A DNA stretch of 64,000 nucleotides, taken from Adineta ricciae. Taxonomy: Eukaryota; Rotifera; Eurotatoria; Adinetida; Adinetidae. Of this stretch, positions 10,511-42,852 are shown piece by piece. Each line of letters starts with the position of its first letter. Position 1 is the first letter of the stretch. A program made the position numbers and the translations under genes. The stretch spans positions 1-64,000 of the forward strand of contig CAJNOJ010000324.1 of NCBI GenBank assembly GCA_905250025.1. Direction: 5' to 3'. The notes under the pieces are model-generated. The model did not search any database. It saw only the letters and a program-made list of their open reading frames with translations, and was not told the origin of the DNA.

Positions 10511-10511
10511 N
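10511..10511. other. Single ambiguous base N, probable contig join
   Basis: The only other N in the window is at 42394. Each N cuts an ART gene of the same family, and the two Ns bracket a block homologous to its own flanks. They are best read as join marks. Confidence 0.75.
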
Positions 10512-11781
10512 CATTGAATACAGATTGATCAGTTTTATACTCTATTAATAAAGAAACTCGATAATTTCAAACAAAAAACGAAAAATGGGAAACTTGTTGA
10601 ACCGAGAAAATATTAAACAAATTGAAGGGAAATCAGACTCTACTGACTTCCTGAGTAAATCTTTGTGGAAAGAAGAGAAAACAGGAAGATCGATAAGAAA
10701 ATGATTGAAGAAATTTATTTTTCATTTCTGTTTCAATTCCGAACGAAATTAGCACGAAGAACTTGAAGAAAACAGATCAAGTTTTGATGAAAAACAGCTT
10801 GAAAAGTAGATTTGTGAATGGCAAAAAATCTGTTGAAAATGATTTTGTTTCGAAAAGAAAAATAAAGAAACAAAAACCTTTCGTGAACAATCTTTGCTTT
10901 TTTTCGTGTAAAGATGCAAATTATGATGAATCAAGGAGAAACATTCGAATCGAAGAAGATTTCACATGAGAGTGAAGAATTTTTGCAAAGAGTTTGTTGA
11001 TGATTTTTGTCAAGAAAAAGAAAATTTTCTGCGGCGAATGAAGATTTCCCCAATCAATTCCTTTTATTTGTTGTACATAGAATTTGTCGATCAATGAAAA
11101 TGAGAAGAATTGACAAATGGATTTGTTTTGATGATTATTGAAGAAATGTGTCTTGAAATGAATATTTTCACATGATAAATATTTCTCATGTTAATCAATT
11201 TTTATGAACAGAATGAAAGAAAAAATGAAACAGTTCGAATTAGAAATAACATGTTGTTTCGATTAGATCGAAACGCCATTGATCTTCGCTGTTATTATTG
11301 GGTACAAATTAAATGATCAATATTTTAGTGTGAACGTTCGGTAAAATTGAATTAGTATTTATTGTATGTGATCAGTGTCACGTCTTGAAAACTAATGAAA
11401 TGTTTATGTCGAAATAAACAGCAACTGAACCCACAACATAGAAAACGTTTGGCTATATAAGGCAGGGGAATATTACTTTGAGAATATTTCCTAAGGACTA
11501 TGAGTATATGGAGTGTTTCTGTAGGATATTTCCGAGGAAGACAAGACAACAATGACATCTATAGAAGAAGACATTCTATGTGATGTCGGTATGTCACAAA
11601 TATGTATGTTGGAAAAACGACGTTCTTTTCTTTTGACGTTGCGTCGATGTATGTGTGACGGAAAAAAATGTTGTATTCGTCACGCGGTGTGCAGTATACA
11701 TCAGAATCGCATTAACGACACCTTATGCAAATATTGCGTTCTTATTAGTCGCAAAATGCGCCACATACTGTAAAACAAATC
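10512..11781. other. Intergenic region upstream of B-box/propeller gene copy B
   Basis: From about 10575 it aligns with 1650-2783. It holds a TATATAA at 11454-11460. A 73-codon Cys-rich frame (11552-11773) ends 8 nt before the main ATG at 11782. In copy A this frame has lost its ATG and carries a one-base indel, so it is more likely an upstream ORF than a gene. Confidence 0.5.
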
Positions 11782-13062
11782 ATGTCTTCTTCGATTCGTA
11801 CTTGCGCCATTACTAAATGCGAAAATTCGTCTTTTGCTTTATGCAATTGCTGCCAAGAACTTATCTGCATTGATCATTTGAAAGAACATTCTGATCAGTG
11901 TAATGCACAGCTTCTGCCAATAGCCGATGAAGTCAACCAATTACTAGAACGACTGAACGAAGTGAATTCGACCGAATTAATATGTGTGAAACAATTGGAA
12001 GAATGGAGACAAGCCGCACATAGATTAGTCGATACATTTTGTGAGCAAAAACGTCATGCCTTGCTCAATAGGGTGCACAAACGAGAACGAGAAAAACTTG
12101 ACAATTGCCGAGGTAAATTAAACGAACTAATTCGAAAGAAAGGTGGCACTCCTGAAAATATAGAGTCGTTGAGAAATGATCTTCGATTAATCGAACAAAA
12201 TCTCAATGAGCTCAAACACTTTCAATTAGAATTGCAACCATTAGTCATTGACAGTGATTTAATTACTATTCCACGATCGAATCAAAATATTCTTCAACTT
12301 TTGATTCCAGATAAAAAAATCGAGTGCGTATCACCGCATTTCTATCTCTTGGCTAGTAATGACCAATACTTGTTGGCTGATATCGGTGCTACTTTGTGTC
12401 TGCTCGATCTTGATTTAAACACTGTGAAAGAAATAGATTTCACGTATGGTAGCGTATGGGATATGTTTTGGTCTTCGAAAATCAGTCGATTTTTCGTAAT
12501 GACTAAAAACAGAATATTGACATTCGATATAGTGACAATGAGTATTCAATTATGCGGGATTCCTTGTGATTCAGACAGTTTATGGGCTCGTGGAACATGT
12601 TCTGATGCGAGCTTGTACTTGTCAGCGATATCAAACGAAGACAGCGCATTTATTCATGAATTCACTTTACCCTTAACTTCATTCGTCAGAACACATCGGC
12701 TACCTTCAAACTCAAACGTCGGTAACTCAATTCGAGATATAAAATTTCGAAGTGATTCATTCATTATCATACGAGGTGACTGGAAACCGCACTCTGCCAC
12801 GTGTCTTGAGCTGCGTTCAGCAATAACACTTGATTGTCTATGGTCAGTTCCAATTGACACTGCAGGTCGCTGCTATTATATCAATAAGAATAATTGGATA
12901 GTTGTCGATTACTATAAGGAGCAACTCCTTCGTATCTCCATGGATGGAGCAATCGTAGAACAAAGTAAATATGTGCCAGCGCCAACAGACGTACTTCCAT
13001 GGAATGATGACTTACTCATAGTGCGAACTGCGAAACGAATAAGCCTGCATGTGCTTCAATGA
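11782..13062 (+). CDS. B-box-like zinc finger / coiled-coil / beta-propeller protein, copy B
   Basis: A 426-residue single-exon protein colinear with the gene at 2784. The eight zinc-ligand positions (C8, C13, C21, C24, C29, H32, H36, C40) are all kept, as is the helical middle and the propeller-like C-terminal part. About 15 substitutions separate the copies (for example V35E and an R for Q near the C-terminus) and there are no indels. Such conservation against broken neighbours suggests both copies are functional. Its upstream region has a TATATAA box about 325 bp before the ATG. Likely a cytosolic scaffold of the TRIM-NHL type without a RING; the partner is unknown. Confidence 0.8.
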   Translation: MSSSIRTCAITKCENSSFALCNCCQELICIDHLKEHSDQCNAQLLPIADEVNQLLERLNEVNSTELICVKQLEEWRQAAHRLVDTFCEQKRHALLNRVHKREREKLDNCRGKLNELIRKKGGTPENIESLRNDLRLIEQNLNELKHFQLELQPLVIDSDLITIPRSNQNILQLLIPDKKIECVSPHFYLLASNDQYLLADIGATLCLLDLDLNTVKEIDFTYGSVWDMFWSSKISRFFVMTKNRILTFDIVTMSIQLCGIPCDSDSLWARGTCSDASLYLSAISNEDSAFIHEFTLPLTSFVRTHRLPSNSNVGNSIRDIKFRSDSFIIIRGDWKPHSATCLELRSAITLDCLWSVPIDTAGRCYYINKNNWIVVDYYKEQLLRISMDGAIVEQSKYVPAPTDVLPWNDDLLIVRTAKRISLHVLQ

Positions 13063-13084
13063 ATTCTGTGTAATGTGAATGCGA

Positions 13085-13098
13085 GTGGGTGTGGGTGT
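13085..13098 (+). repeat. Short telomere-like tract GTGGGTGTGGGTGT in copy B only
   Basis: Just after the B-box stop, copy B reads GAGTGGGTGTGGGTGTTTTG where copy A (about 4082) has GAGTGTGCTTTG. The added bases make about two units of TGTGGG, the repeat reported for bdelloid telomeres. It may be a repair scar or a chance G/T slippage tract. Confidence 0.4.
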
Positions 13099-13189
13099 TT
13101 TGAAAGTATTTAGTGAAAACAAGGAATCATATTGAATCTTAACTAGTCCTGTGACACATATATTTAATAAAGAATAAAGAATAATACTG

Positions 13190-14180
13190 CACTAGGTTCA
13201 ACGCGTCCTTGGATTGTATAAATATGTGGTAGTATTGACTTCAGCACCACCAGTGTTCAGAGATGGCAGATACATAGCGGTAACGTATGTTCGTTTGCTA
13301 ATCATTGATGTTGATATTGTCCACTTATTGGAAGTGAAATCATATAAGCCATAGGGTTGAAAAGTGGCCGATGTGCAGTCGTAGTCTCCCATTACTAGAA
13401 TTTTTATTTATCAATGCAAGCAAGTAGATCGTTTGAATGTCTATTGAATTTAGATCACAGTCATGTCCGATTTTGGCGTTCGGTTGTAATGTAAAAGAGA
13501 CAAGTATTCGTATGGTAGACCGAGAGTGCCTGCTACTGCCTTAGAGAGTTGATCGAAATTCTTCTGAAAGTAGCTTAGAAATAAAATGTACATATGTGTC
13601 ATGATCTGTACGTGACAGATACCTAAATAAAATAAGATATTTAAGATTCAAAAAACTGCTGATCATATCGCAAAATTACTTGCCTAATGTGTGCATTAAT
13701 TCATCCATAATTACTTCAGATCTGAGACAATCTTGAGAGCGATGAAACTTCGTGGTTGATTGCTGAACTAGAAAGCATTCCAGCCTAGAACCGTAATAGA
13801 ATACATTGTGAATTATTCACAGCGGTACCACTTTCCATTTTGCTCATTACACGAACAACAGTTGCTTTTTGTTCTTCAGCTAAAAAGTAAATACCGTACT
13901 GTGTCGCGTCGAGATCTGATAAAGAATGATGCCATTTGTCCAACGAGAGTATCATGATCACGTATTGCTACTACATGTTTTGCTCTCTAAAAAAATATAA
14001 TCTAGACTACAATTGCAAAATCGCAATTATCGTCTTACTTTTCCCAAATGATATAGCATTCGATCATGATATTCCACAATTTTGAAATGGAAAGAAATAG
14101 CATAAGCGCAACGTTCCTCAATAGCTTTAACTTACGTGTTTTTCGTAGTTTTTATGATGAAACTACTGGAATCTGAGGGG
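13190..14180 (-). pseudogene. Decayed astacin (M12A) + Kelch locus, copy B
   Basis: Partner of 4230-5330, with more of the upstream catalytic region kept. On the minus strand one continuous frame reads YYGSRLECFLVQQ ... QDCLRSEVIMDELMHTLG (ending near 13680), matching the GC.S.VG and zinc-helix part of astacin. Here the second helix His is kept but the first is Asp. An earlier piece (KWHHSLSDLD, AEEQKATVVRVMSKME) matches the astacin N-terminal part in another frame, so a frameshift separates them. The following exon is cut by a deletion that removes its donor. The Kelch part is only 13198-13392; relative to copy A about 300 bp of its 3' half is missing. Clearly non-functional as a peptidase. 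Confidence 0.6.
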
Positions 14181-15329
14181 GCATTAAATATGAATATTCA
14201 ATGTGCGGAATTCGATCGTATCGGTACTGTAGAAGCATAGAATGAAAGTAGCGGCAACCATCCTTTGTGCTAAAAAATTGTATTCACAAATGTAAAGAAA
14301 CTGTTTTAGCGCACGTCTTTATATAATCTGTTGAATAGTGGTCAACGGTAGAAATCGAACATAACCTTCAGAAATTAGTAAGACATCATTTATGGTAAAA
14401 AACCGATTGATTTTCACTCTTTTAATAGATGATTTGAAAGTGTTTATACTGCATCTTGATATATCATCACTTCCTCGAATTTCAGATTCGAAAAATATTC
14501 CGCTTTGACGAAGATTGAATGACAGAGAACTATGTATTACAAAACTGCTCCTTGGTGTAGCCATTTTTCAATTACCATTTCATAATCTCTCTACTATTAT
14601 TTCATTCGTCTTGAATTTCGCAATTACTTCAAGTTCAGCTTCAAGAAATAATTACGTTGGTCTGACGCTTACTATTGACGAATATTTATTGTGGGAAGTT
14701 CCATCCATTTCTGATAGACATTTGAAATAATCGAGTGTTCTGCAGAATGAATATCAGGAACTGCACGCAATAAGTTCTTGTCCATAAGCCATCAGAAAGG
14801 AAACATCATTTGCTAGAACGAACTCTTAGTACAATTGAGTATCATTCATATTAAGTTAGAAGATTTATTGCATTATCTCTTTGAACCTTCAAAAAACATC
14901 TTTGGATTGCAACTGTTCATAATACATGGTACGATAAACCACTTACGATTCTTCGCTACATTGAAATGTCGACCATTTAGCAAGAATCTTTTTTAAAATA
15001 AGATTATTCTGATGAACAGAAATTCTCAAAGTTCGTGTGACGAGCAGATAATGGACTTTCTATGTTGAAATCTGTGCAGTTGATGCTGTGGTTCGTTTCA
15101 GTTTTGCTCGTTTTTCCATTTCAATCAAATTACTTTTTCCCCTTGGTAACAATTCCATTGTAACCGAGAAATATTTTCTCGTGTTTTTGAATAGTATTTT
15201 TCTCCTCCTTATAATGACTTCTTTTACAAAAAAAAGCATACAACTTTTCTGTTCTGTTACTTCTGAGTAATTTTTGTTGACGTTGAGTCCACGTTGTTAT
15301 ATAGTCACCGTCATTTGCAACGAAGACAA
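14181..15329. other. Intergenic region; 81-codon minus frame of uncertain status
   Basis: A minus frame at 14319-14564 starts with ATG and may be an old first exon of the astacin locus; its A-copy partner is frameshifted. No domain is recognised. The rest is AT-rich spacer aligned with 5780-6625, with a deletion of roughly 200 bp relative to A near 14980. Confidence 0.4.
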
Positions 15330-16305
15330 ATGGCGTCTACAGAAGAGAGAAGTTTTTGCAAAATATGTAACAAAGAGAAACGAACTGTGAGATGCGATGG
15401 ATGTTTACAATCATTTTGTTATGCTCACATAACCGATCATCGACAAGGATTAAACATTCAACTGGACTTAATCGAAAGCAGCTGTGATCTATTTCGACAA
15501 ACACTAAATGATCATACAAGCAATCCTCAAACGTCGTCCATGATACAAAAAGTCAATCGACGGAGAAAATTCAACAAACAGCAGATGAATGTCGAAGATT
15601 GATTACTGAACATTTAGATAAGAACATTCATGAAATCGAAACTGAATTCAGAAAGTTTGCTGATCGAGTCAAATACATTCGCAAAGAAGATGATTTCAAC
15701 GAAATTGATTTGAATGAATTTGATACTAAACTAAAACAATTACAACAACAACTTCATCAACCATCTATGTTTTCTATTCAAGAAAGTTCGACTTCACTTA
15801 TCAACAAAATTCAGATTGTGACATCTTCTGGTGAGTCAGTTATACATTTCTGTGTGAGAATAATGAAAACGGAACATACAGGACGTGAGGATTTACGACT
15901 ATATAGACTGAATATCCATGAAATCAACGAAGTAGATGTTTTTGTTTAATTAGAGGCAAATCATCAAATAAAGAGCAAGAATATAGCTGTGCAAGTCAAA
16001 ACTCCACTATCAGCACCACTTTGGTATCATCCATTTCAAGTAACTAAGGTTCAAAGGTAAATGAGTACAATATACTTTACTGCTTCACCACGGATTTTTG
16101 AAATTATTTTAGAATAGACGCAAACTATCCAGAATGCAAAACTAGTACGACACAATATTCAGTCGAAGATTGTGTTAATGGTCCTCGAGCAGAGGACAAG
16201 GACAATGATATCAACTTTGACACATGCCCGTTATGTTATTGGGAATTTCCACCATCTATGTTAATGCTGGAAAAACGCAAGCATATAGAAACACATTTTG
16301 CATAA
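15330..16305 (+). pseudogene. B-box / coiled-coil / UBZ zinc-finger gene, copy B, frameshifted
   Basis: Same three-exon structure as 6626-7611 (15330-15830, 15954-16056, 16113-16305) and the same splice sites. In exon 1, near 15560, a 16-nt segment present in copy A (AATGGGAAAAAGAATC) is missing. It is flanked by AATC on both sides in A, a typical microhomology deletion, and shifts the frame, so translation ends at a nearby stop (15602). Downstream exons still encode an intact CPLCYWEFPPS...HIETHFA finger, so the lesion is recent. A short B-box-only protein could still be made. Confidence 0.75.
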
Positions 16306-16645
16306 GATTAACAAACTACACTACGTAGGTGATTTCAAATTTTCTTTCTGATGGAATACAATTCTACCGTTCACATTGTCATCTAGTCTAGATACAATGC
16401 GATACTGAGTGAAATAAAATAAACTGTCTGAGACATTTTTTTAATTGCATGAATATCTTCAATTGGAAAAAACCCAGATGTGTGCTTATTTAAGAAAAAT
16501 ATTGTTTACTTTTGCTCTAATATCTTATGTCAGGTAAAAAAAATCAACCGTGACCAATTTCAGGAAGAGAACCGATAAATATACGTTGTGTCGAGGTAAA
16601 ACATATATTAAAAGCAATAGATTAATCATTTTCTGTACATACAAC

Positions 16646-18482
16646 ATGCTATGCAAGGATGCGGCCGTAGTCTTAGATGCAATGAACATAGATATCAATA
16701 AAGCAATTGATCAAGAAGAACAAATTAGATGCAGAACGATTGCTATTCGTCGGCTTATTCGAAAGATCGACTGGCGATTTATTCCATTTTTGTTTCTCCT
16801 CGAAATGTCACAGTATCTCATTCGTATTAGTATTGGTAGATAATTTCAACATGAATAGTTCCTTATCAACGAATCTAATGATATACTCTTTAGGTCATGC
16901 TAAATTAATGGACATCGGCAAGGATATAGACCTATCAACGACTGACCAGCAATTAGCGGTTTCACTTTTTTTCGTAGCTTATGTAAGACAATTTGTATAA
17001 ATCAATTCAAATATATTTGTCATATGTGATTTCGTTCAGCTGATCTTTGAGCTACCCAATATTTTCCTAATGCGTTATCTGGGACCAGCTTCGTATCTTC
17101 CCATCAGTATTTTTGCATGGGGTTCCCTCACTGTTGGCATGGCTTTCGTTAGTAATGCTCAAGCACTCTTTGCAGTTCGATTTCTTCTCGTAAGTGAATT
17201 AAAACTTCAATAATGGCACTTCTATTTCTCAATCCGAAGGGTATCGCTCAAGCAGCTTTTTTCCCCAGTCTCGTCATATACATCTCATTATGGTATCCTA
17301 AAAAGTATCATATGATGAGACTTGCAATTCTCTATGGCGCTGCGATCATTGCTGGTGCATTAGGTAGTATTCTCGTACGTATTTCTGATAATCTCATGCT
17401 TAACCCATTAATCTACTTTTGATTTACAGGCATATGGTTTCAAAAAGATGGATGGTAGTAGAAATCTGAATGGATGGCAATGGATGTTCTTGATTGAAGG
17501 CTTACCAATGATTCCCTTTGGTATTGCTACGTTCTTTCTGCTTAGTAACATACCCGATAATGCAAATTGTAAGAACTTCAAAACTAGGATACATGTGTTT
17601 ACATCGATTTTGCTTCTAAAAAGGGTTAACTATGCATGAGAGGAATCTTTTGATCAATATTCTCCTTCAAGATACACCCGTCGTTCAATTTGATCATCGT
17701 CGACTTTCCTGGCGACAAGTTTCTCATGCATTTATTGATCGTCGAGTTTATCTCTATGTCTTGATCACAACTGGTGTTTTAGGTATTGTCAAATACCTTA
17801 CAACATATCTCCCATCGATTATCAAAGACATGGGCACTTCAACCGAAGTGGTACAATTAATGACAGCACCACCATACGGTTTTGCATTTCTATCGTGTTT
17901 ACTAGTTGCATATTCATCCTCAAGAAAAAATGAACATGGACTTCATTTAGTATTCTGCCTATTTGTTGGTCTACTGGGTTTTATCCTTCTAGTTACTGTA
18001 CACAATTTTAGTCAAACAGGAATGTATGTGATCGGTTGCGTTATTTGTTGTGGCGTATTTTCCGCACTTCCTATATTATTATCTTGGGCAACAAATAATA
18101 TCGATGGTCATACAAAGAAATCAATCGCTATCGGATTCATGATTGGTGCTGGCCAGCTCGGTGGTATCATCTTCCCTCTAGTAAGAAACCATTGTAGTCA
18201 ATATTGATGATAAACTTGTTTTTAGATTAATGATGATATCTCAACTAGTCGACGCAATAATCTTATTTGTGTTGGAATATTAGCAGTTAGTTTAATTGCG
18301 ACGATTATTTTACGTGTTTGCTTGATAGTTGAAAATCGACGACGAGAAAGATTGACCTCGGAAGAATATGAATATGAAGCAAATATTAAAGAATCGTGTG
18401 ATTGGGTAAATTCGTAGAAAACTTTCTCATGTCTTTATCTTCTTCTATTTTATAGCATCCCGGTGTTCGATACACTCTTTGA
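16646..18482 (+). CDS. MFS transporter, Dal5/Tna1-like, copy B
   Basis: Eight exons colinear with copy A: 16646-16835, 16894-16982, 17040-17189, 17240-17374, 17430-17568, 17624-18180, 18226-18405 and 18456-18482. Every exon has the same length as its partner, and all phases are kept, giving 488 residues. The upstream ATG of copy A (7884) is GTG here (16550), so this copy must start at 16646 or make a shorter N-terminus. All transmembrane signature segments (SLFFVAY, RFLLGIAQAAFFPSLVIY, GWQWMFLIEGLPMIPFG) are present. A plasma-membrane organic-anion carrier by family; the substrate is not known. Confidence 0.83.
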
Positions 18483-18871
18483 AATTTCAATCAAAACGAG
18501 TTTCGTGTCTGTGAAAATGTCGTTTTTCGTTTTTAAATATTTTCTAAAAATAAATTATATGTGATATTCAAAAATGATTATTTCATCTTGATATATTACT
18601 TCCTTTTTCCAACATAGACAAATCGCGAATAGAAAAGTCGATCGATTTATCAAAACAAAACTGATTTCTATTTGTGGACACACATCGCACACACCTATTT
18701 CATCATAAAAGAAAAAGGGATTTTTTCCTCATGATTTGAATAGAAAATGATTATATTATTCGTCATATATGCTTTTATCGGTATTGACGCAAGCGTTTGT
18801 AATTACAAAGCATTGATTTAAAGCATCCTCTATTGTATTCAGATTTGCACTGAGTTTCTCGCTCAATTATC
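18483..18871. other. Intergenic region between MFS and WWE-ART genes
   Basis: AT-rich with no gene seen. Aligned with 9817-10176 and slightly longer. Confidence 0.6.
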
Positions 18872-20026
18872 ATGTCACTTGATGAAGCCGCCCCTGGATA
18901 CGGCTACATATGGGAATATCGAAGCAATGCAGATCCGTGGGATGCAGAACAAGTTCCCAAGTGGACACAATTTCCTAGTGCTACATCACTAGCCATTGAA
19001 AACGCAAAGAATCAACAATCCAAGGAGATATTTATTGAGAATAATTATCGTATTGACTTGGAAAAATATGTTCAGCAGCATACGATAGACTTACATAGAC
19101 AAAGACCTATTCGGCGACGACGACTACTGTTACAGCACGATTTAATCAATAATTCTTCAGATAGTGAAAGTATTAAATCTCACCGAGAACGGATGTCATA
19201 CTGTTTGGGAGCACCACAGCGGTGTAGCACCACTCGGGATATGTCTTACTATGGTTCATCGTTTGTAGATGATTGGCTATTCTTATTTTCCCATGGGAAA
19301 CTGGCAATTACTTTCGATACTATCTTTCCTGCCCTTTTCAATGGTTTGATTACTGAAGGAAAAAATCAGGAGACACATATACTCAATGACATCGAAAAAT
19401 CGCTACGCACAGCTCAGCAAAAAACCAATGGACAACCTGACGAAGATAGAATAACTGAATTAGAAGTTTGCTGTGCACGACTTTATACCAAAGAGTCTTA
19501 TGTATACTGCATGACAAATAATGCATTACGTGACGATGACCGAACGAAGTTAGTCACACTCGGACCGTTTTGTTATCTTCTATTCAATTACATTGCTCGA
19601 TGTCTCAAACAGAAACCATCCATTCGACATCGTCTTCGACAATTTTTACATTCGAATAAAACAGACACGATTATTCTTTATCGCGGCGACAGAGCCTCAG
19701 AAAACACTATACATGAGTATCGGCAGGCAGCTGGAGATAAATCTCAATATTTCAAATGGCTTCCATTCATTTCGACTTCACGGAAAAAGGAAGAAGCAGA
19801 TAAATTTGCACAGGATGTTATGTACATAATTGCAATTGAATCTCAGTTGTCCAACGAAGACAGATTTGCATTTATGGCACCGATCAGTGAGTACATCAAC
19901 GAAGACGAATATCTACTACTGCCAGGTCTGCAATTTCAAGTGAAGAAAGTCGAATTTAACAACACGCAAGGTTTATATTACGTTCATATCAAGATCATTT
20001 CATCGTACATCTCAAAACTACACTAA
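18872..20026 (+). CDS. WWE-domain mono-ADP-ribosyltransferase (R-S-E type), complete
   Basis: 384 residues, single exon. Residues about 8-85 form a WWE domain (YGYIWEYRSNADPWD, NNYRIDLEKYVQQ, RPIRRRR), a fold that binds ADP-ribose polymers or ubiquitin-system partners. A linker follows, then an ARTC-type catalytic domain (about 130-375) with all three signatures: Arg271 in LYRGDR, S301-T-S303 in FISTSR, and E344-D-E346 in NEDEYLLLPG. An ExE with Glu at both positions suits arginine-directed mono-ADP-ribosylation. No signal peptide is seen, so it should act inside the cell. The start is the only good ATG before the WWE domain. Two further partial copies of the family (10177 and 42395) belong to the other haplotype. 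Confidence 0.88.
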   Translation: MSLDEAAPGYGYIWEYRSNADPWDAEQVPKWTQFPSATSLAIENAKNQQSKEIFIENNYRIDLEKYVQQHTIDLHRQRPIRRRRLLLQHDLINNSSDSESIKSHRERMSYCLGAPQRCSTTRDMSYYGSSFVDDWLFLFSHGKLAITFDTIFPALFNGLITEGKNQETHILNDIEKSLRTAQQKTNGQPDEDRITELEVCCARLYTKESYVYCMTNNALRDDDRTKLVTLGPFCYLLFNYIARCLKQKPSIRHRLRQFLHSNKTDTIILYRGDRASENTIHEYRQAAGDKSQYFKWLPFISTSRKKEEADKFAQDVMYIIAIESQLSNEDRFAFMAPISEYINEDEYLLLPGLQFQVKKVEFNNTQGLYYVHIKIISSYISKLH

Positions 20027-20225
20027 TTGTTTCATTTGAAATTATTGAATAGAAAAATAGATATATTCAAAGGACAAAGGACACAACGCGAAAAAGGTGT
20101 CATTAGTCGAAGCTCGAATATTTCAAGTGCATCCAGGGATTGTTCACGCTTAGTCCAGCTTTTTAAAGTCTAATTTCATTGTTTCTCGATAGATCACGAA
20201 ATCATACGAAAAGTGCCTTAAATCC
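19574..20225 (+). repeat. Homologous block 2, B side (partner 42395-43060)
   Basis: Covers the catalytic half of the WWE-ART gene and the tail of the LRR gene. Confidence 0.8.
20040..20225 (-). pseudogene. Remnant of LRR gene 3' end (copy B)
   Basis: This stretch aligns with 42861-43060 of the LRR gene, including segments that encode its final helix and C-terminal tail. It carries small deletions (for example in the run near 20155) and homology stops at about 20225, so only the tail of the gene is left in this copy. Confidence 0.65.
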
Positions 20226-20451
20226 TTGATTATAATTGATCATCAAAATGAAAAACTCCACGCATGATTCCGTCATCTATCGATTATAAGATAGATTCAA
20301 ATATATCAGTGTACTATTGTGATTTTGAAGACAACAGTTGTCGCTCTGGAATGTTTTAAGTGCATACTAAAAATACCATCTGTGTGTCACATATCAGTAT
20401 TTTGCTCTTGATTTACATTCTTATATTATAAAATTTAAAAAAAAACGCTTT
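20226..20451. other. Junction region at the edge of the B-specific deletion
   Basis: Homology with A2 is lost at about 20225 (A 43060) and resumes at about 20320 (A 53950). The roughly 95 bp between is unique to B. No gene seen. Confidence 0.5.
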
Positions 20452-32299: not shown

Positions 32300-32743
32300 C
32301 GTTGTTCGTCGAAATGAAGATAATTATATTTCCAAACATTCTTGTGCGTATATTTATCTATCGTACTTAACGCCTTTCTTCTTTCTTCTTCTTCTATTTC
32401 TACTTCAACCCACACATCAAGTATAAATAGTTTTGTATATCTAACAAAAGATAACTGCTACATGTCATTCGCCTCCACATATACGTTTGTTTTTCTTCGC
32501 ATTCTCGATGCTATTCTGATCATATACATAGAACGAACTCTTATATTCCGTTATCAGAAAACACTAAAATGGACGCTGTTCTATTTCTCTTCAGTGTGAA
32601 TCATCACTGAGTACACCATATATTTTTTTTACGATGACGTGTCATTGCCTTCCTTCTCTCATAAATTGTGAGTCATTCTTTACTTTCTTTATCAAATAGT
32701 AAAAACACAGAGATGCATAGGCAAGAGAAGAAAAACATTCAAC
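32300..32743. promoter_or_regulatory. Divergent region between Ly6-like and hydrolase-like genes
   Basis: Pyrimidine-rich tracts and a TATATTTTTT stretch near 32618 are seen. The short plus frame at 32342-32599 has no domain and is taken as chance. Confidence 0.4.
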
Positions 32744-33640
32744 ATGGTGTTGGTTACATTATTGATTGTAGTTTTCATCACCATAGTGTTGGCAATTGTT
32801 TATTTACAATATTTTTCCAAAAGCCGTTATCGATTTCGTTATTTGTCGAAAATATCAGGTTTAACTTCAATCAAATTTTCTGTGCTCGAACAAAATCGTC
32901 AAACATATTATCCAGCGAATCCCGAATGTCGATGTCATCCGAATCACGCTTCAATTATTGTACCGCAAACTAATTGTCCTCATAGATCTGAGACATTATT
33001 TATTAGCTTTGCCGGCGCTGCACTACTCGTCGGAGGATTCACATTTACAGAATGGAAATCTACAATTAAACTATTGGACTCGCAAGCGGACATATTATTT
33101 TTAACTGATCCTGCTCAGTCGTTCTTTCTACAAGATTCCACTTATTCATGGCAAGGATTGACATATTGTCGTTCATTAGTTCGAAACTATTCTAAATTGT
33201 ATAGAAAGGTTGTATTAATCGGTGCTTCAATGGGAGCGAGTATGGTTTGTATGTGTAGCGATCTTGCTACACTCTCAATTGCATTCAACCCGATATTCAA
33301 TCCGTCATTGGTGGCGAATGCATACTACTTTTATAGGGTATTATGGAAATATCCAAAAACACTCATTTTGAAACAAGTGCAAACCAACATCGATAAGATT
33401 ACGAATGAAAATCTACCGTCTATTTTACATGTACATTGGAGCAAGAATTCACATGATGATATCATTCAAGCAAATTTTATTTCAAATCTAAATTTTATGC
33501 ACTTCACGGATGTGAAGGAGTGTACTAAACAGCAAGGAGTATATTTTTGGTTGCATAAGTGTGATAGTCATGGTTTACCCCAATACTTGAAAAATGAAGG
33601 AATTCTAGCTGATATTTTGCGATCTCATGTAAGCGCGTGA
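32744..33640 (+). CDS. Membrane-anchored alpha/beta-hydrolase-like protein
   Basis: 298 residues, single exon. Residues 3-24 form an N-terminal transmembrane anchor (LLIVVFITIVLAIVYLQYF), giving a type II topology. The rest has an alpha/beta-hydrolase pattern: a strand with LFISFAGAALLVGG as possible oxyanion loop, a nucleophile elbow VVLIGASMGASM (Ser in GxSxG), and a C-terminal His in CDSHGLPQYL. The acid member is not obvious. I cannot assign a substrate, and a catalytically dead relative is possible. AATAAA lies shortly after the stop, and the next gene converges 70 bp away. Confidence 0.6.
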   Translation: MVLVTLLIVVFITIVLAIVYLQYFSKSRYRFRYLSKISGLTSIKFSVLEQNRQTYYPANPECRCHPNHASIIVPQTNCPHRSETLFISFAGAALLVGGFTFTEWKSTIKLLDSQADILFLTDPAQSFFLQDSTYSWQGLTYCRSLVRNYSKLYRKVVLIGASMGASMVCMCSDLATLSIAFNPIFNPSLVANAYYFYRVLWKYPKTLILKQVQTNIDKITNENLPSILHVHWSKNSHDDIIQANFISNLNFMHFTDVKECTKQQGVYFWLHKCDSHGLPQYLKNEGILADILRSHVSA

Positions 33641-33710
33641 ATATTTTTTTTGAGATCATAAAAGCAGAATAAAGAGGTTTTTGAAGTCAGACGTGAATAA
33701 ACGTTTATAG

Positions 33711-35153
33711 TCAATGGCATGCACAAGTATTCAATAGAACGAACATGGCACCAGCAGTGTCATCTGAAGCGAGTATATCTTGACAATGATCGTTGTTAAA
33801 ATCGCCAACAACGATCCAAGTATAGCTGCCAGTTAATCCTGTTGAAAAGATCATTTGTGTATCGAAGTCCCCATCACCATATCCAACTAGAATATAGATA
33901 ACAGACCGGGAAGTCGGATTGACAGCTATATCTGATATACCATCGTTATTGAAATCACCAGTGGCAGGTCGTGTATAGTATGTTTTATTTCCTACAATAT
34001 ATTTTTCCACCGGACTCATCGTTCCATCACCATTGCCTAATAGGACACCAATTCGTTTACCACCGCTGTAGGAAACAACAGCATCCGAATGATTATCTCG
34101 ATTGAAATCACCAATCGCAATGTACGATGGATAATAATTGCCACCAACAAATGAGGTCTTTTGCGGTTCAAATGTTCCGTCACCTCTGCCGAGCAACACA
34201 CCAAAGCCTCGGCTATTAATCGTATTGTAACTAATATCTTGATGACCATCACCATTAAAATCAGCTTGATCCACTGTTGATGGATTTGCATTAAGCCCGG
34301 TATAGTATGTTGTCCTATTTCGAAACGATCCATCTCCATTTCCTAATAAAACAATGAGTATGTTAAACGATGGAGCAGACACAGCTATATCATTGTTATT
34401 ATCACCATTAAAATCATAAGCAATAATACCTCGTAAATTCGTACTGTCTCCCATATAAAACTTCGCTAACGATCGAAATGTTCCATTGCCATTACCAAAC
34501 ATCATGTATATGTAAGCTAGACTTTCACTAGTCATTACGACATCAGGTATTTTATCATTATTAAAGTCGCTTACTGCTAAACCGAAATACCATGTGTTAA
34601 ATGTCATTACGAAAGTTTTCATTTCGTTTGTGTAGTATCCACGACCATCCCCAAGCAAAACATGAATGCTGCTAGTTTTATAATTGAAAAAAGCAATGTC
34701 AGCTAGATTATCTCCATTCAGATCAGCGATAACAGGAGATTTGAGTCCAGCATTCGAAGTATTATTATAGCGAACTGCTATTTGAAACTGCAACTGACAC
34801 ATGGGTACTATGTTAAAATGAAAAAGGAAAGTTCGTTTAAGATTTTCTCTATACATGGCAAATTAGATTACTATGTGCCGTCGAAGTTGAAGTTGTTGTT
34901 GTGGTCATTGTACTTGTCGCCATCGTACTTTCATCGATGTTAATTGTCGTAGGCAATGAAAATTCTATGTAAACATATTTAAAATGTATGGAAATTCGAA
35001 TAGTTCGAATATCTCACCATCTGGATTAGTTGTCGTCTTCTTCGACCGAAGGACATAAATCGAAAAGAGTGTAAGACAAGCGATTGTAATCGTAATTATT
35101 AAACATATTGAAATCGCATTCATATACGATCGGTTTGATCGTTGAACACTCAT
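33711..35153 (-). CDS. Type II membrane protein with FG-GAP/VCBS beta-propeller
   Basis: Three exons on minus: 35018-35153, 34872-34964 and 33711-34807; 441 residues with phase kept. Exon 1 encodes a short cytosolic tail and a transmembrane segment (ISICLIITITIACLTLFSIYVL). Exon 2 is a Thr/Ser-rich stalk (TMATSTMTTTTTSTSTAH). Exon 3 holds about seven FG-GAP units with calcium-loop motifs such as DLNGDNLADI, DFNNDKIPDV, DFNGDNNNDI, DFNRDNHSDAV and DFNNDHCQDI, as in integrin-alpha heads. The head should be extracellular. The ATG at 35153 lies only 54 bp after the stop of the three-module gene on the same strand, preceded by a pyrimidine-rich tract and an AG at 35158-35159, which suggests trans-splicing of a downstream operon gene. 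Confidence 0.82.
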
Positions 35154-35207
35154 AGTTCTTAAAACGAGAGGGTTCTTTCACAAAAATGAAATAGTGCAAA
35201 AAATCTC

Positions 35208-38200
35208 CTACTCGAATGAAGTGCTCGTTGATTGTGTATCCGTCGATGCTGTCGGATGAATAGTTTGCGAGTATTTCTTTCTGATGATTCGAACTATTTT
35301 TGGACAGATCCATTCTAAAACAATGGAAAGACCACCTTGAAGACCAAGCATAACAGTAATAGTGTAGAGCACACTGAACGGCTGATTATAAGTATATGAA
35401 CACAACAAAGGCAAACATTGCTCGAAATATAATGAATAATTAATTGTTGTTGCCCACTGTTCGACAAATAGTTCGTCCATAAGTTCAGCAACAGTGGTGT
35501 TGATGAAAAATCGACTATCTGCTATTGATAGCGGTGTTGACGAGTTGATTAGTATTGTTGCATTCGTATATTTTTGAACCAGATTCAGACACGATTGATC
35601 ATAGAAGCATTCGAGCGTTGACGAACGGAGAGATTCACTTGGTAAGCAGCCCATTTTTAAACCTTTAATTGGAATTGCAGCAGACAGTTTTTGTTCATCA
35701 ATAAAATTAGCTTGAGTAGTACAATTGGAATGTAATCCACATGAACAGTTGCCATCATAGATAATCGCTCGACTCGGAATAAATGGAACGTAGACACTCG
35801 ATGTAAACCAAGTGGAGAGATACTCGAAATTTGTGCCATAACTGGAAACGAATGCATTGCCATGATTAACACTTCGAATCAGGAAGAAAAGACGTGTCAA
35901 TGTTTTCGAAGCGGTCGATTTCTTCTGTTTGATTGATAAATTCAGACGTGAGTGAAAGTCATTTTCTCTTAAAAGTTCAGTTGTTATGAATAATGACGTG
36001 AGAAATTGTTCAATAGTGCTCTGAATAGATTGAATGGAAAGTTGACATAAACCTTGAAGATATTGTAAATGAGCTGCAAGAAAACGACGATAATCTTGTT
36101 GTCCGTAAATCGATAAGTTTGAGACAAGACCATTGGAAATTTCATACCGCCATTGATCGGATGTCATCGGACTTGTGCAAATCTACAACATTCGGATGTA
36201 AACTTCACGAATACTAAACAAATATTTCTCACTTTATGAAATTCTGCATTGATCTTAGTAAATTCATTGTATTTTGTTGCAATTTTCGAACATGTACATT
36301 TAAATTTCTCTCCATACTTTTGTTCCAACTGTGTATAACTTTTAAACGATGGTTTATCGAATGTGGTTGTTACAGTTTGAGGTTGAATGATAGTATACAA
36401 TGTGAGAATAGTAAGACCAAGGATCAAAAGAACAAAGTAGAGACGTGTTGCCCATTTGCCAAGATGTTTCGCTGTCGCTCGATCAGCATGGCTACCAAAA
36501 TCTCGTATGGAAAATACATTCAACTGAATGACAGTTTCATATATAAACAAGAACACTTCTCTACTAATTCTTTTCAAATGGCTGCAACTGATTCGACAAG
36601 CTATAGAAAAATAAAGAAAAGAGGCCTAAGAATTAACGTACAAGTAATATAGTATCTGCAATTTGACTTTCACTTATGATACTACTGAGAGTTTTTCTTC
36701 TACGTAGAACAAAGTATACTTACCGAATTGTTGTTGATGCTGTTGCTTGTGAAAAATGTATCTAAATAATTTACGTATACCACTCACCAATATTGGTGCG
36801 AAAATTTGTAATGCAAAAGTCAGACCACCGATCATCGAAATGAGAATGATCACCACTTCCACAATCGTTTTGGTGCGCATTCGTAGAGAATAAGTGCAAT
36901 ATTTCGGTGCACACAAGCCATAAAAGTACTTATAAGAATAAGATGGGTTCCACTGTTCGATCATAATTTGTTCGACTATTGTTGAAATTGATGTGTTAGG
37001 CGGATAACGACTGGCATTTGGATAATAAATAAGCGGATTGGCTTGGTACCATTGTGGAAATTCCACATTTTGATAATAACTGTCTTTCATATAGGTCATT
37101 AGAATCGAATAACAATTCGATTCGGAATAGTAACAAAACAGTTGTGAAAATAGAAGAGAACTGAATGTTGAACAGCTAGCAAGCGAACCAGGAACGATGT
37201 AACTTATATACGCATAGATACGTGAATTCCAAACACTATCCATTTGATAAACAGCTACTGAAGTTTGACAAGAAGAATTTGTTGCACAAATGCAATTGAT
37301 CGATGACAAATTTACATAACGAGTTCCCGGTAAGCTAAATGCTATCTAAACAACGAGAGAATGTGAGTATCTTGAAAACAAGAAGATCTACTTGTAATGT
37401 GAGGTTATTCGGTTGAATAACTCCTGTTAAGAATGGATCTTGGATTGTGTCCCAATCGTTTTTTCTCGATCCTAGATAGAATTGGTCGACTTGGGTGAGT
37501 AGTCGGGCGATGTTAACTAAAGAACCAAATGAAGTGATAGTTGATTGAGAAAACTGATTCAGTGTTGCGTCTAATTGAGTGCGAAATTCCATCTCCGAAA
37601 GAACACTAGCAATAATCAACGATTGAGAAAGAAAGTGATGAACGGCATCATCGATTGTATTCTTCGCTAATTGGCAAAGATTCGATAGTAACTTAAATTG
37701 TAAGTATGCTCGGTTTCGCCAATCTTCTGTGTTGTAATCAACGACATATTGCAAGATGGAAAGCCAACGATCGGAAACCCAATCGCTCGAGCAAACTTGA
37801 TGCAAAACTGGGGATAGACTTAGGAACTTTTCATAAGGTATAGTTGTTGTTGAACAAGGACACAGCAATGTGTTGGGATGCAAGATTTGTAATTCTTCGT
37901 AAGTTAATAAAGACGGATTCGCTTCGGTTATTGTTGCGATTTCTGTACTTAGTGAAGTGAAGATTAGAAGAATGGTGAATGAAACTAGAGAAAGTCAAAT
38001 CTTCGAGATTATCCATACGGCGAAAAGAAACTCACCTCCTAAGAGAATCAAATAAACTCGCGTGATCAGTCTCTGTTTTCTGATATCCTCTTCCGATCTT
38101 TTCTCGATATGTTTGTAAAGATTGACTTGCTGAATCGATCGAAAGAGCTTCTTTGGATGAATATTATGACATAAAATAAAAAGATTCTTATCTTCGACAA

Positions 38201-39683
38201 CTTCTTTGAATTTGAGAAACATTTCGAATAGAAATGGCGCAACTAAACGAAGAATGATTATTAAACCACCGTATAAACTAATAAACATTGTAATCGCATA
38301 AGGAAGATTAGTTCGAGCGGTTGTTATATAGGAACATGATGATGGCAAGCATTCGGCAAAATATTCCGCATAATTCACTTCGGTGGACCATTCTTTGACG
38401 AAAAGATCGCGCAGATAATCATACACAGTGATGTTCTGTTGCTCGCCTGGCAAAATTTCACTTGTCCAGTTGAAATTCAGCTAAAATAGAGAGAAGAGAT
38501 TAATAACGAAATGTTGGCTTCTACGAACTTTGTCGAGATTTAGAAAATAGGTGATCAGTATCTGGATGCACTTAATATCATATAAACAATCGAGTGTACT
38601 TGGTAGGAGAGCTTCGAGCGGAGTGCATCCAGCAAAGAATCCATCGACAAATATCATATTTGATGGCGGTCTTGACCACCCGGCTATAACAAACAATCCT
38701 ATCACACCGGATCTTGATGAGAAACTTGTAGGACTAACTGGATTTTGCGTGCCACACATCAACGTTTCAGGTGTCGTAACAAAAATGGTCGTATCTTCAG
38801 TAAATTGTGTCTGTAGTTGATGAATGGTATATTGATTATTGAGATAGTAACTTCCAAAGATGAGATTTGTATTCAATGCTGAGACTACATAGTTGCCGCG
38901 AACATAGACGCGAAGGTAATTCAGAAATGATATAATCTGTGTCGAGATGCTGTTCTTGATGAGATTGATCGTCGCATTAACTTCCAATTGCAGGCGTTCG
39001 GCAGACTGAAGATGAATTGTAAGATATTCATCATTGTCGAAATCGATTTGACTCTGAGAAACTGTATCACTCGAGATTGAGCACAGATCGGCCAGAAGTT
39101 GAAACTAGTGAAGAGAAATTTGAGATTTACGAATTATTGAAAATGGATTTACTTGAGATCGGGCTGTTGTCCGAAAGTCGGAAGGTCCGTAGTCGCTTGC
39201 ATTGATCAAGTATAATGCTTCTATCCAAGGTTTGCTAACAAAAACACTCGAACAAATTGAGTGAAAGGTAATTGTATTTGAAACAAAGTTCTTGTAAGGT
39301 ATTGTAACTGTTGAACATGGACATGAAAGCGTTTCTTTATGATTCGAATAAAGTTCAGTGAAAATATTTGGATTAATTTCATAAATCGTGATCGTTTGAG
39401 AATGTGGATTCATTAAGGTGATGTAAAACAAAACATAGAGTGAAACTAAACATTGAACTAAAAGAGCAAACTATCGATGAGTGTGATAGGACTTACCCAT
39501 GAGGAGAAGAATGTATAGTCGGGTGGTATATTTTTGATGTTTGAGGGCAATGACTGGATCTTTCGAGTGATTTTCTTCATAGTAGTCATTTTCTTCCAAC
39601 ATGAATAGATTATAATTTCTCCACCAATCATAAAACCATTGTAAAACGACTCTCATTTGCATCGTAGCCGTACGGAAAATCAT
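35208..39683 (-). CDS. Three-module six-TM protein: tandem [TM-ectodomain-TM] units
   Basis: Eight exons on minus: 39497-39683, 39153-39445, 38529-39104, 38036-38480, 37392-37984, 36724-37345, 36233-36600 and 35208-36182; 1,352 residues, all seven joins in phase. Raw frames look like three separate genes, but splice donors after each module's second TM (GGTGAG, GGTAAG) join in frame to the next module's first TM. Each module has a cytosolic lead, TM1 (TRLYILLLMVS, TRVYLILLGVS, TRLYFVLLILG), an ectodomain starting with CPCS or CTCS, Y..F, H..CSS and W, a second Cys cluster (GC.P.E.L..STL.C.YD..C), a VEQW.....Y...C.P..C.Y segment and TM2 with GG. The single-module family is one I know only as unnamed rotifer proteins. 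DEG/ENaC-like topology is superficial; no channel motif is seen. The weakest join is the GTTCGT donor at 38528. Confidence 0.7.
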
Positions 39684-40121
39684 GCGTGCTAGCCGCAAGT
39701 TATTTAATCAACATTTTCTATGTGACGTGGAATAGTTCAATGAGCTATTTACTAAAAATAAAATTTGGTAATTTGAAAATTGTTGAAGGAGCAACTAATG
39801 AACTACATAGACCAGATGTTGTTAGGAGTTCTACGTAATAGAAAGTGTTTTTTCATCAACAGAGAACCGTTGCGACGTTTTTAATCTGTTATTGTTTGTG
39901 TAAAAAACTGTTTTTCATCATAGCATACGTATGCTCTTGATGTCAATTTATAATTTATGTTGTGAAGCAAATAGAAAACTTCAGTTTTCTTCTCTTCCGA
40001 GCAAATGTTCGGAGAATTGTGTCGTTCGATAGACAGCGGAGAACGAAGAACAGAAAGAATATGATTTCATTTCACTCGCAAACTTTTTGTCAAAGAATAG
40101 GCTGTTTGTGTCGAAGATTCG
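39684..40121. promoter_or_regulatory. Divergent region between six-TM gene (-) and PARP-like gene (+)
   Basis: AT-rich. No named motif. Both genes probably start from here. Confidence 0.4.
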
Positions 40122-41886
40122 ATGGCGAGTCAAAGACGTGTCAAATCTGCCAACAATTTAGAAAAGATTTATCAATGCAGTCGCGACATACGAGAATGTC
40201 GTCTAGGTGCTCTATTTATGGCTGAGAAAGAACAAGAGCGAGGGTATCGAATCAATGCAACCGACGTTCAAAATACTGAACAGATTCAGATACGAATGAT
40301 CCGATTACATTTACTTCAACAGAATGAATTAATCAGAGGCTATTCGGGTGGTGTTGTCAAACGTGAAGTGCCAAAGATACCGAAATTTCCCGACATTGGC
40401 ATGCCTGCGGAGAAAAAATGGCCCAAGCCCGCTAAGAACAATCATTCGATACGAAAATATACTAGCACAAGATCAAAAGGCAACTCCGGTGCTCATCGAC
40501 CAACATCACCAGTTCCAGTACTGAAAGTAGAACGCGTTGTTTTCGAAAAAAACCGAGCTGTCATCAATATGAAAATGCAACAAGCCGAATCGAATGATGC
40601 CGATGTTAATGATAAGAATAATATTGTTGACGATATTGTTTACCCACCCGGAGTCAAAGATCGTCGTCCATATGATATAGTTGCTAAATATCGAAAATTA
40701 GCAGGAAAAACAACTGATTTCACTGCCGAACCTCTTGACGTCGGCGAAGACAAAGCAGAAACAACTGTTCTCGGTTTAAGTAGTTTCGCTGAAGCACACA
40801 GTTGCGAGTTGATATTCACTGATGAAGAGCATCGATTTGATAATAGTATCTATCGGGCTGCTTGCGGTGTAGCTGACTTAGGAAGTATTCATCTCTTGGC
40901 TACGGATTCAGTTCAAACAGCAACGTTTTGCTTCTTTATGAATTTCGATTTTAACAGTGAATTCGAAGAATCGTCAGAAAGAGTCGAAGCTTTCGTGGTC
41001 GACTTTTGTCAAGCAATCGCGACAGTTCTCGAATGTAATACGAATAATGTTCGCATGTTCTCAGTTGGTAAAATGGGTAAAGAAAAGAACAAAAGTGAAG
41101 TGAACTTTGGAATAACAACGGGAGAAACGAAAAAGACCGAGCAACTTGCAAATGCATTAAAAGTAAACGTTTTTCAGAGTTATCTTGCCAGTAATAACAA
41201 TTTTAAATTCGTTTTTTTTCTCATTCTTTCAGAGCCGTGCTCGTTCAGGTTTTACTAATGATAAAGTGCTTGAACGCGTTCTCGCGAAAGACTATGAGTA
41301 CGAATGGAGAACAGCACTACAAGCTTTGAGATTGCAAATCAGCGATCTTGATCCTACGTATAACTTTGACTATAGACCTGACCATACACCTAACGAAGAT
41401 AGTCGCGGAGGCCATGCCTACTATCTACCTCGTGGTTGGTACCGACATGCTCTTCGGGTTGAACACAAGTATGAAAAGGATTCACATTGGTTGGACAATA
41501 CAAATGCGAAAGGTGAGTGGCCGGTCGCCTTCCACGGAACAAAAGATTGGGCAGTATCAAGTATTGCTAAGGAAGGTTTGAAAACAACTGCCGTTAAAAC
41601 TGATGCCATGCGATTGGAAGCCATTCAACAAATGGGAAATGAAGCGGATCGTCCAGGTCTATATGTAGCCACGCATTGTGATGGTGGAGCAAGCATTTAT
41701 ACGGAAAAGTTCACCGTCACGCCATTTCCAGACCAAACTGAAACCTTTCGTATTGTTTTTCAATGCCGTGTCAAACCCGAAAAGTATACAGTTCATACAA
41801 GCCCTGTGAATCAAGGGCACGCATGGCGTTATGTTGACCCAAGTTCCATCCGTCCATATGGTATTTTGTTAAAAAAAGAGAACTAG
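40122..41886 (+). CDS. PARP-superfamily-like protein with long N-terminal extension
   Basis: Two exons, 40122-41162 and 41233-41886, joined in phase 0; 564 residues. Residues 1-215 are basic and low complexity, likely disordered. A middle domain (about 225-365) has an unknown alpha/beta pattern. The C-terminal part carries a PARP-like core: H448 in VAFHGTKDWAVSSI, G-L-Y491 in RPGLYVATHCD, and a terminal IRPYGILLK strand. The third residue of the H-Y-E triad is not evident, so mono-ADP-ribosylation or no activity is as likely as polymer synthesis. No signal peptide. This family is separate from the WWE-ART genes, which use R-S-E chemistry. It converges with the SLC5 gene. Confidence 0.65.
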
Positions 41887-42006
41887 ACCCTGTCGGTTCT
41901 TTCTACGATATACTTCGCAAAGACGAATTTGATTTTCTATCTTCCATTATTCTTTACTTTTATTCTATCAAAGAAACCAAGAGAATGATTGTATAGAAAA
42001 AAAATA

Positions 42007-42393
42007 CTATGAAAGCAGTGCTTCTCGTTTGTCATCAGATTCATCGGAAGCGTTAGTTGTGTGCAATGTCTGACTTTCTGTTGACCCGCAACAATATTTA
42101 CATATATCATTCATTCTAATAATTAACTTCCAATCGATGTCATTTGGCTGGATAGGATTATGCAAATAAGACACAATTCCACCAATGATAACTACAGTTC
42201 CGACAGCAATCGTCGTATACCACATGTAACTCACCGAGTACAGCCCAAAAAATAATTCAGATCTAGAATTGAAAAGATGTCAGCTATGATCGAAAGCTAT
42301 CATCACTTACTTAGCATCCACCAAACTTCCTGTAAGGGTGGCGTTTCTGTTCGTTCTACTAAATATATCGATATCAGTACAGTTCAGTATTGA
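42007..42393 (-). CDS. SLC5-type sodium:solute symporter, 3' exons only (cut at N)
   Basis: The final exon (42007-42262) encodes SELFFGLYSVSYMWYTTIAV and a hydrophobic helix GTVVIIGGIVSYL with a cytosolic tail, matching the last transmembrane helix of SLC5A vitamin/iodide-type carriers. It joins in phase to a preceding exon (42311-42393, NRNATLTGSLVDAK), which runs into the N at 42394. The rest of the gene should lie upstream on the true contig. Substrate unknown. Confidence 0.65.
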
Positions 42394-42394
42394 N
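42394..42394. other. Single ambiguous base N, probable contig join
   Basis: To its left an SLC5 gene is cut; to its right a WWE-ART gene begins in mid-frame. Partner of the N at 10511. Confidence 0.75.
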
Positions 42395-42847: not shown

Positions 42848-42852
42848 TTGTT

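What the first reader, a model, noticed from the sequence alone, without database searches (positions are those of the whole stretch)
10511..42394. A 31.9 kb block between two single Ns looks like the second haplotype inserted into the first
The only two Ns in the window sit at 10511 and 42394. The WWE-ART gene is cut at both: its N-terminal half ends at the first N and its catalytic half starts at the second. Using the complete copy as a ruler (10510=19205, 42395=19574), only about 368 bp would be missing if the block were removed. The block itself repeats the gene order of both flanks. This fits an assembly that placed one bdelloid haplotype inside a small gap of its homologue. If so, the apparent direct duplications are alleles and gene counts are doubled.
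Basis: partly seen in the sequence, partly recalled or inferred. Interest (0 to 1): 0.75.

Follow-up and report, generated by a model that had tools for sequence, protein, structure and literature searches.

The report
Two rotifer haplotypes zipped into one
The apparent large duplication in this rotifer sequence is an assembly mistake in which the two parental versions of one stretch of chromosome were cut up and laid alternately into one scaffold, so the doubled genes are alleles and not extra copies.

Summary
Apart from one Kelch repeat array, self-BLAST found no piece holding two copies of a stretch. The pieces sort into two haplotypes of about 54 kb: B-D-G and A-C-E-F. Pieces that are NOT neighbours share exact 221-base end overlaps (B to D, D to G); neighbours share none. 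So B continues into D, not into C. A and C are one allele with 368 bp unassembled inside a WWE-ADP-ribosyltransferase gene. Divergence equals published A. ricciae allelic divergence: 5.8% mismatches against 5.5%, Ks about 0.13 against 0.135. Three tested stretches have no third close copy in the held contigs. Two other scaffolds show the same signature (exact overlaps of 208 and 172 bases jumping over an allelic piece). Pieces lie in order of their start on one haploid coordinate. This is a same-scaffold haplotypic ("heterotype") false duplication. No reads could be examined.

The parts
1..10510 (+). Piece A, haplotype 2, left part; ends inside the WWE-ADP-ribosyltransferase gene
   Evidence: 1717-10510 matches B 10702-19205; the last fragment (10159-10509) encodes only WWE
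10511..10511 (.). Single N, scaffold join A|B (judged false)
   Evidence: no exact suffix-prefix overlap of 16 bases or more between A and B
10512..42393 (+).
18854..20023 (+). Uninterrupted WWE plus ADP-ribosyltransferase reading frame in haplotype 1 (390 codons, stop to stop)
   Evidence: PF02825 at 1.4e-06, PF03496 at 3.6e-06
19206..19573 (+). 368 bases whose haplotype-2 counterpart is missing between A and C; no other copy found in the held contigs
42173..42393 (+). 221-base exact overlap with scaffold 76091-76311 (start of piece D): the true right neighbour of B; 6 mismatches against the allelic end of C
42394..42394 (.). Single N, scaffold join B|C (judged false)
   Evidence: no exact overlap of 16 bases or more between B and C
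42395..64000 (+). Piece C (runs on to 76089 of the scaffold), haplotype 2, continuation of piece A; begins inside the ADP-ribosyltransferase gene
   Evidence: 42395-43064 and 53953-76089 match B 19574-20230 and 20326-42393
43065..53952 (.). 10.9 kb present in haplotype 2 only (haplotype 1 has 95 bases there); frames with LRR, TPR, EGF and NHL repeats in its first part

Best explanation
It is an assembly artefact. The two haplotypes of one roughly 54 kb chromosomal stretch of a bdelloid rotifer (most likely Adineta ricciae) are about 6% different and were assembled as separate contigs. A scaffolder then laid the contigs of both haplotypes on one axis in order of where each starts and joined them with single Ns. 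The true paths are haplotype 1 = B (10512-42393), D, G and haplotype 2 = A (1-10510), a 368-base hole, C (42395-76089), a hole of about 2.5 kb, E, a hole of about 2.3 kb, F. Shown here: the allelic correspondence, the exact end overlaps that skip neighbours, the divergence, the lack of a third close copy for three tested stretches, and recurrence in two other scaffolds. Inferred: the species, the hole sizes after C and E (from the match coordinates), and the sort-by-start rule of the scaffolder.
For: (1) Exact 221-base suffix-prefix overlaps B to D and D to G, and none of 16 bases or more between any two neighbouring pieces. Among 2,816 exact runs in four allele alignments (B-C, A-B, D-E, D-F) only 2 reach 221 bases, and the allelic end of C differs from the end of B at 6 of 221 sites. 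(2) A ends and C begins in the same gene, 368 bases apart on the intact copy. (3) B and C end at the same homologous base, each at an N. (4) Apart from the Kelch array 660-1623 in A, self-BLAST (E 1e-10, 100 bases or more) found no second copy of any stretch within any of the 7 N-free pieces. (5) Ungapped mismatch 5.8% against 5.5% published allelic divergence for A. ricciae. Pooled Ks 0.132 in 20 of 28 frame pairs (Ka/Ks below 0.5 and at least 120 aa) and mean 0.126 in all 28, against published 0.135 for homologs and 1.27 for ohnologs. (6) Only two close copies in the held contigs of 9000-10500 and 26000-30000; 19100-19700 is found whole once, with its two ends in A and C. (7) Same signature in C261 (exact 208) and C233 (exact 172). 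(8) The last 85 bases of F match the start of a piece on scaffold C418 at 98.8%, which suggests that haplotype 2 continues on another scaffold.
Against: No reads or depth were available. C carries 10.9 kb that B lacks, and D 76312-78842 has no close second copy, so the haplotypes are not fully matched; allelic indels and unassembled gaps would explain this. Two short segments between A and B are only 78 and 83% identical. At the left end the picture is less clean: B 10512-11711 matches A at 87% and other contigs at up to 82% over part of it, B's first 190 bases do not align to A, and A 1-1159 has matches of 86-87% on C406 and C261. D and F share a 510-base exact run, so long exact matches between alleles do occur. 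The F to C418 overlap is not exact. The screen does not list a stretch that is its own reverse complement; G has one such imperfect palindrome. Small contigs appear not to be held, so copy counts are for the held contigs only. The ordering rule is inferred from three scaffolds that were not a random sample.
Confidence: 0.96

Rival explanations
1. A real direct (tandem) duplication on one chromosome: homologous blocks physically linked, as proposed for the ameiotic architecture of the 2013 A. vaga genome.
For: Copies are in direct orientation on one scaffold. Linked tandem homologous blocks were reported for two A. ricciae scaffolds in the 2018 paper.
Against: Every duplicate pair found between pieces spans an N, and no N-free piece was found to hold both copies. 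Exact overlaps bypass the neighbours. The left copy stops, and the right copy resumes, 368 bases apart in one gene, which a duplication would not be expected to produce. No third close copy was found for three tested stretches, although a duplicated chromosome plus its homologue should give three or four. The 2018 authors themselves suspected that some breaks at Ns are scaffolding errors.
Confidence: 0.02
2. The block is an ohnolog (ancient whole-genome-duplication copy) or another paralogous region wrongly joined, not the allele.
For: Bdelloids are degenerate tetraploids, so a second related region exists for many genes.
Against: Ks is about 0.13, against 1.27 reported for A. ricciae ohnologs, and the order of matching segments is the same over the whole scaffold. 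The left end has more distant relatives on other contigs (for example C406 at 82% and C331 at 79%); whether these are ohnologs was not tested.
Confidence: 0.01
3. The two sequences come from two different clones in the sample, not from two haplotypes of one animal.
For: The assembly that fits by size used DNA from about 200 animals (passage).
Against: [quoted passage not shown] Divergence matches the intragenomic values published for A. ricciae from an earlier assembly and reads, and the later sample is from the same clonal culture.
Confidence: 0.01

Closest known systems
Heterotype (haplotypic) false duplication on the same scaffold (Genome Biology 2022, PMC9516828; purge_dups, PMC7203741; passages read)
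   Same: Divergent alleles assembled separately, kept in one assembly, separated by assembly gaps, and inflating gene counts.
   Different: Here the two haplotypes alternate piece by piece over a whole 108 kb scaffold, and part of the haplotype phase can be read from exact end overlaps left in the assembly.
Linked homologous blocks reported in bdelloid assemblies (A. vaga 2013; A. ricciae scaffolds ARIC00305 and ARIC00659 as tandem repeats, PMC5916493, section 9 read)
   Same: Homologous collinear blocks in direct orientation on one scaffold, most likely in the same species.
   Different: The assembly here appears to be the later ARIC003 one; whether this scaffold corresponds to ARIC00305 could not be tested. 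Here the joins are judged false from the sequence itself.

Membership tests
Heterotype false duplication (criteria as listed in PMC9516828) | Assembly gap between the duplicated pair on the same scaffold | tested here: met
   every duplicate pair found in C324 spans at least one N; no piece was found to hold both copies except the Kelch array
Heterotype false duplication (criteria as listed in PMC9516828) | Divergence at the level of heterozygosity (follows from the copies being alleles; not one of the paper's four listed characteristics) | tested here: met
   against 39, 54: 5.8% against 5.5%; Ks about 0.13 against 0.135
Heterotype false duplication (criteria as listed in PMC9516828) | Half (haploid) read depth over the copies | not testable with these tools
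   no reads held
Heterotype false duplication (criteria as listed in PMC9516828) | Discordant read pairs at the joins; one-copy k-mers in the reads | not testable with these tools
   no reads held; exact contig overlaps that skip the neighbours serve as an indirect substitute
True linked tandem homologous block (ameiotic architecture) | Contiguous sequence running from one copy into the other | tested here: not met
   none found in the 7 N-free pieces
True linked tandem homologous block (ameiotic architecture) | More than two close copies per diploid genome | tested here: not met
   two close copies only, for three stretches, in the held contigs
Ohnologous (whole-genome duplication) pair | High Ks and degraded gene order | tested here: not met
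   Ks about 0.13; collinear

The most novel reading that the evidence does not exclude
Zipping of haplotypes, ordered by start coordinate on a haploid axis, runs through many N-containing scaffolds of this assembly. It accounts for the tandem linked homologous blocks reported in A. ricciae and inflates local gene families, and the exact end overlaps left in the file (172 to 221 bases in the four seen here) would allow the haplotypes to be re-sorted without new sequencing.
Probability: 0.5. Interest if true: 0.4.

Novelty: not a real feature. Interest (0 to 1): 0.3.

Why it matters
Whether homologous blocks lie on the same chromosome was a central argument for a bdelloid genome architecture incompatible with meiosis. 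This scaffold shows, from the sequence alone, how such linkage can appear without existing. Gene counts, tandem-duplicate calls and broken-gene calls from this scaffold (and from at least two others) are unreliable: the two 'truncated' WWE-ADP-ribosyltransferase genes are one allele cut by a gap. The test used here (exact overlaps between non-neighbouring pieces) needs no reads and can be run on any scaffolded heterozygous assembly.

Tried and rejected
It lies inside B 20326-42393, which matches C 53953-76089, mostly beyond the window.

A fixed assembler k-mer as the cause of the 221-base overlaps: considered when both overlaps proved to be 221, dropped when C261 gave 208 and C233 gave 172.

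The 2018 A. ricciae assembly as the source: set aside, since it is 174.5 Mb with N50 276.8 kb at rank 176. The 2021 ARIC003 assembly (135.6 Mb, 4,302 sequences, N50 283.8 kb at rank 129, GC 35.5%) fits the held 130.46 Mb in 1,033 contigs, with C128, C129 and C130 of 283,933, 277,305 and 281,877 bases (so not strictly in order of length) and C1033 of 10,113 bases, assuming that contigs under about 10 kb are not held. How ARIC003 was scaffolded is not stated in the section I read, so the responsible program is not named.

Ordering by piece ends or midpoints: rejected for C324, where E would precede D. Order by starts fits all 7 pieces (1 of the 35 interleavings that keep both haplotype orders) and, by my own reading of the match coordinates (no separate call), also C261 and C233.

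Neighbour of B's left end: its first 55 bases recur exactly at C332:99537-99591 on the other strand. That place is inside a piece, 968 bases from the nearest N in the 8 kb fetched, so no left neighbour was established.

Right end: 840 of 2,896 bases of G 101105-104000 match C418 at 93%; the overlap of that C418 piece with F is 85 bases at 98.8%. For G 104001-108000 only repeat-like partial matches were found.

The three further scaffolds with split duplicates (C261, C233, C331) were found because they carry relatives of the left end, so they give no rate. The first 10 kb of C323 and of C325, fetched as neighbours in the list, have no N.

The 28 frame pairs used for Ks are stop-to-stop frames and not gene models; some overlap or lie on opposite strands of one stretch, so they are not all coding or independent. 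Eight of 28 were left out of the pooled value; all 28 are.
Full report
What was checked. The two Ns of the window are at 10511 and 42394 and are the only ones. The window is the first 64,000 bases of contig C324 of an unnamed assembly of 130,461,839 bases in 1,033 contigs, and the contig is 108,000 bases long. I fetched the rest of it. It has six Ns, all single (10511, 42394, 76090, 89683, 95171, 99534), giving pieces A 1-10510, B 10512-42393, C 42395-76089, D 76091-89682, E 89684-95170, F 95172-99533 and G 99535-108000. The 17 N runs that I saw, in eight contigs, are each one base long, so either the assembly or the stored copy writes its gaps as one N.

Anatomy. A 1717-10510 matches B 10702-19205. 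B 19574-20230 matches C 42395-43064. B 20326-42393 matches C 53953-76089 over 22,170 columns at 93.7%. D 78844-84076 matches E, D 86675-89682 matches F, and the tail of F matches the head of G. B and C end on the same homologous base, each at an N. The matches listed are direct and collinear. Apart from one Kelch-repeat array in A (660-1623), self-BLAST of each piece (E 1e-10, 100 bases or more) found no stretch twice in one N-free piece. That screen does not list a stretch that is its own reverse complement; G holds one imperfect palindrome at 106103-106436.

The deciding result. Testing all ordered pairs of pieces in both orientations for exact suffix-prefix overlaps of 16 bases or more gave two joins only: the last 221 bases of B equal the first 221 of D, and the last 221 of D equal the first 221 of G. 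No two neighbours in the scaffold overlap. The homologous end of C differs from B at 6 of those 221 bases, and among 2,816 exact runs in four allele alignments (B-C, A-B, D-E, D-F) only two reach 221 (244 and 510). The assembly therefore still carries a trace of the true order: B-D-G is one haplotype (53,498 bases after removing overlaps). The complementary pieces A-C-E-F form the other (54,054 bases). From the match coordinates its holes are 368 bases between A and C, about 2.5 kb between C and E and about 2.3 kb between E and F. For A-C-E-F there are no exact overlaps to show the phase; the grouping rests on complementarity to B-D-G. The 108 kb scaffold is one locus of about 54 kb written twice, zipped.

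The interrupted gene. In B an uninterrupted frame at 18854-20023 has WWE (PF02825) and ADP-ribosyltransferase (PF03496) domains. The A fragment that ends at the first N has WWE only (107 of 117 residues equal to B). The C fragment that starts after the second N has the transferase only (143 of 150 residues equal). The 368 bases between them have no other copy in the held contigs. Complementary halves of one allele are what an unfilled gap gives and not what a duplication would be expected to give.

Divergence. Ungapped mismatch over the 11 aligned segments of at least 300 columns is 5.8%; the allelic heterozygosity published for A. ricciae is 5.5% (PMC7953838, passages). Ks between frame pairs: 28 pairs, mean 0.126, SD 0.052, range 0.037-0.262. 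The 20 of 28 pairs that pass Ka/Ks below 0.5 and at least 120 aa pool to 0.132, mean 0.141. These are stop-to-stop frames, some overlapping, and not gene models. Published A. ricciae means are 0.135 for homologs and 1.27 for ohnologs (PMC5916493, section 7).

Copy number in the held contigs. 9000-10500 has two places, both in C324. 26000-30000 likewise. 19100-19700 is found in full once, with its two ends in A and C. A real duplication on one chromosome plus its homologue should give more. Results that go the other way in detail: 76312-78842 (D) has no close second copy, and 43065-53952 of C has none in the two stretches searched. I read these as unassembled or allele-specific sequence. The left end is less clean: B 10512-11711 matches A at 87% and C406 at 82% over part of its length, and A 1-1159 has matches of 86-87% on C406 and C261, in a gene family with many members.

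Recurrence. Three other scaffolds that came up as relatives of the left end show split duplicates. C261: piece 7660-10954 overlaps the piece starting at 12382 by exactly 208 bases, jumping over 10956-12380, in which 10958-12076 is 92% identical to 8738-9848. C233: the piece ending at 72803 overlaps the piece starting at 85035 by exactly 172 bases, jumping over 72805-85033, which matches 62160-72159 in segments of 90-94% identity. C331: 101406-103167 and 103550-105321 are 89.9% identical across an N; no end overlap with other fetched pieces was found, and the contig ends there. The last 85 bases of F match the start of a C418 piece at 98.8%, and that C418 piece is 93.8% identical to G 101020-101944, so haplotype 2 probably goes on in another scaffold. 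These cases were not sampled at random, so no rate can be given.

How it most likely arose. On one haploid coordinate the pieces start at -1526, 0, 9062, 31661, 34414, 42137 and 45032 for A to G, which is the scaffold order; ends or midpoints would put E before D. Of the 35 interleavings that keep both haplotype orders, this is the one sorted by start. I infer that a scaffolder placed contigs of both haplotypes on one axis (a collapsed reference, long reads or linked reads) by start and did not test whether neighbours were alternatives. Which program did this is unknown. The assembly fits Adineta ricciae ARIC003 by its statistics (PMC7943196, section 5, first of two parts, Table 1); the methods section that I read does not say how that sample was scaffolded.

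Relation to what is known. This is the same-scaffold heterotype false duplication described for vertebrates (PMC9516828, passages): gaps between the copies are met, divergence is at the level of heterozygosity, while depth, read-pair and k-mer criteria could not be tested. For bdelloids, the 2018 paper reports two tandem linked homologous blocks in A. ricciae and warns that breaks at Ns may be scaffolding errors (PMC5916493, section 9). Whether C324 corresponds to one of those scaffolds is not known. That a later chromosome-level A. vaga assembly shows homologous chromosome pairs I know from its citation in PMC10665377 (passages) and from recall; that paper itself was not read.

Verdict. The duplication is not a real feature of the genome.

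Noticed in passing
window 43065-53952: About 10.9 kb present in haplotype 2 (N-free piece C) and replaced by 95 bases in haplotype 1 (20231-20325). Its first part has frames with LRR, TPR, EGF and NHL repeats, and the two stretches searched (43065-47000, 48700-52600) have no close copy elsewhere in the held contigs, so it looks like a hemizygous gene-bearing segment, or a deletion in haplotype 1.
   Followed up: partly
scaffold C324: D 86675-89682 against F 95280-98285: The alleles share a 510-base exact run inside a 96% stretch, while the longest B-C segment is 93.7%; possibly a gene-conversion tract.
   Followed up: no
window 642-1610: Kelch-repeat frame built of near-tandem units of about 144 bases (84% matches); 1-1800 gives 51 matches in the held contigs, itself included, with only 40 of 243 candidates scored.
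   Followed up: no
window 24333-30671 and 57967-64000: A single uninterrupted frame of 2113 codons with a NACHT domain, present in both alleles; at DNA level 26000-30000 was found nowhere else in the held contigs.
   Followed up: no
window 10512-10566 and C332:99537-99591: The first 55 bases of piece B recur exactly (opposite strand) inside another scaffold; 55 is, by recall, a default SPAdes k-mer length, so this may mark a graph junction.
   Followed up: partly
scaffold C324:106103-106436: A sequence of about 360 bases with imperfect two-fold symmetry, listed on many contigs, mostly at 82-88% on one strand (capped list); probably a short mobile element.
   Followed up: no
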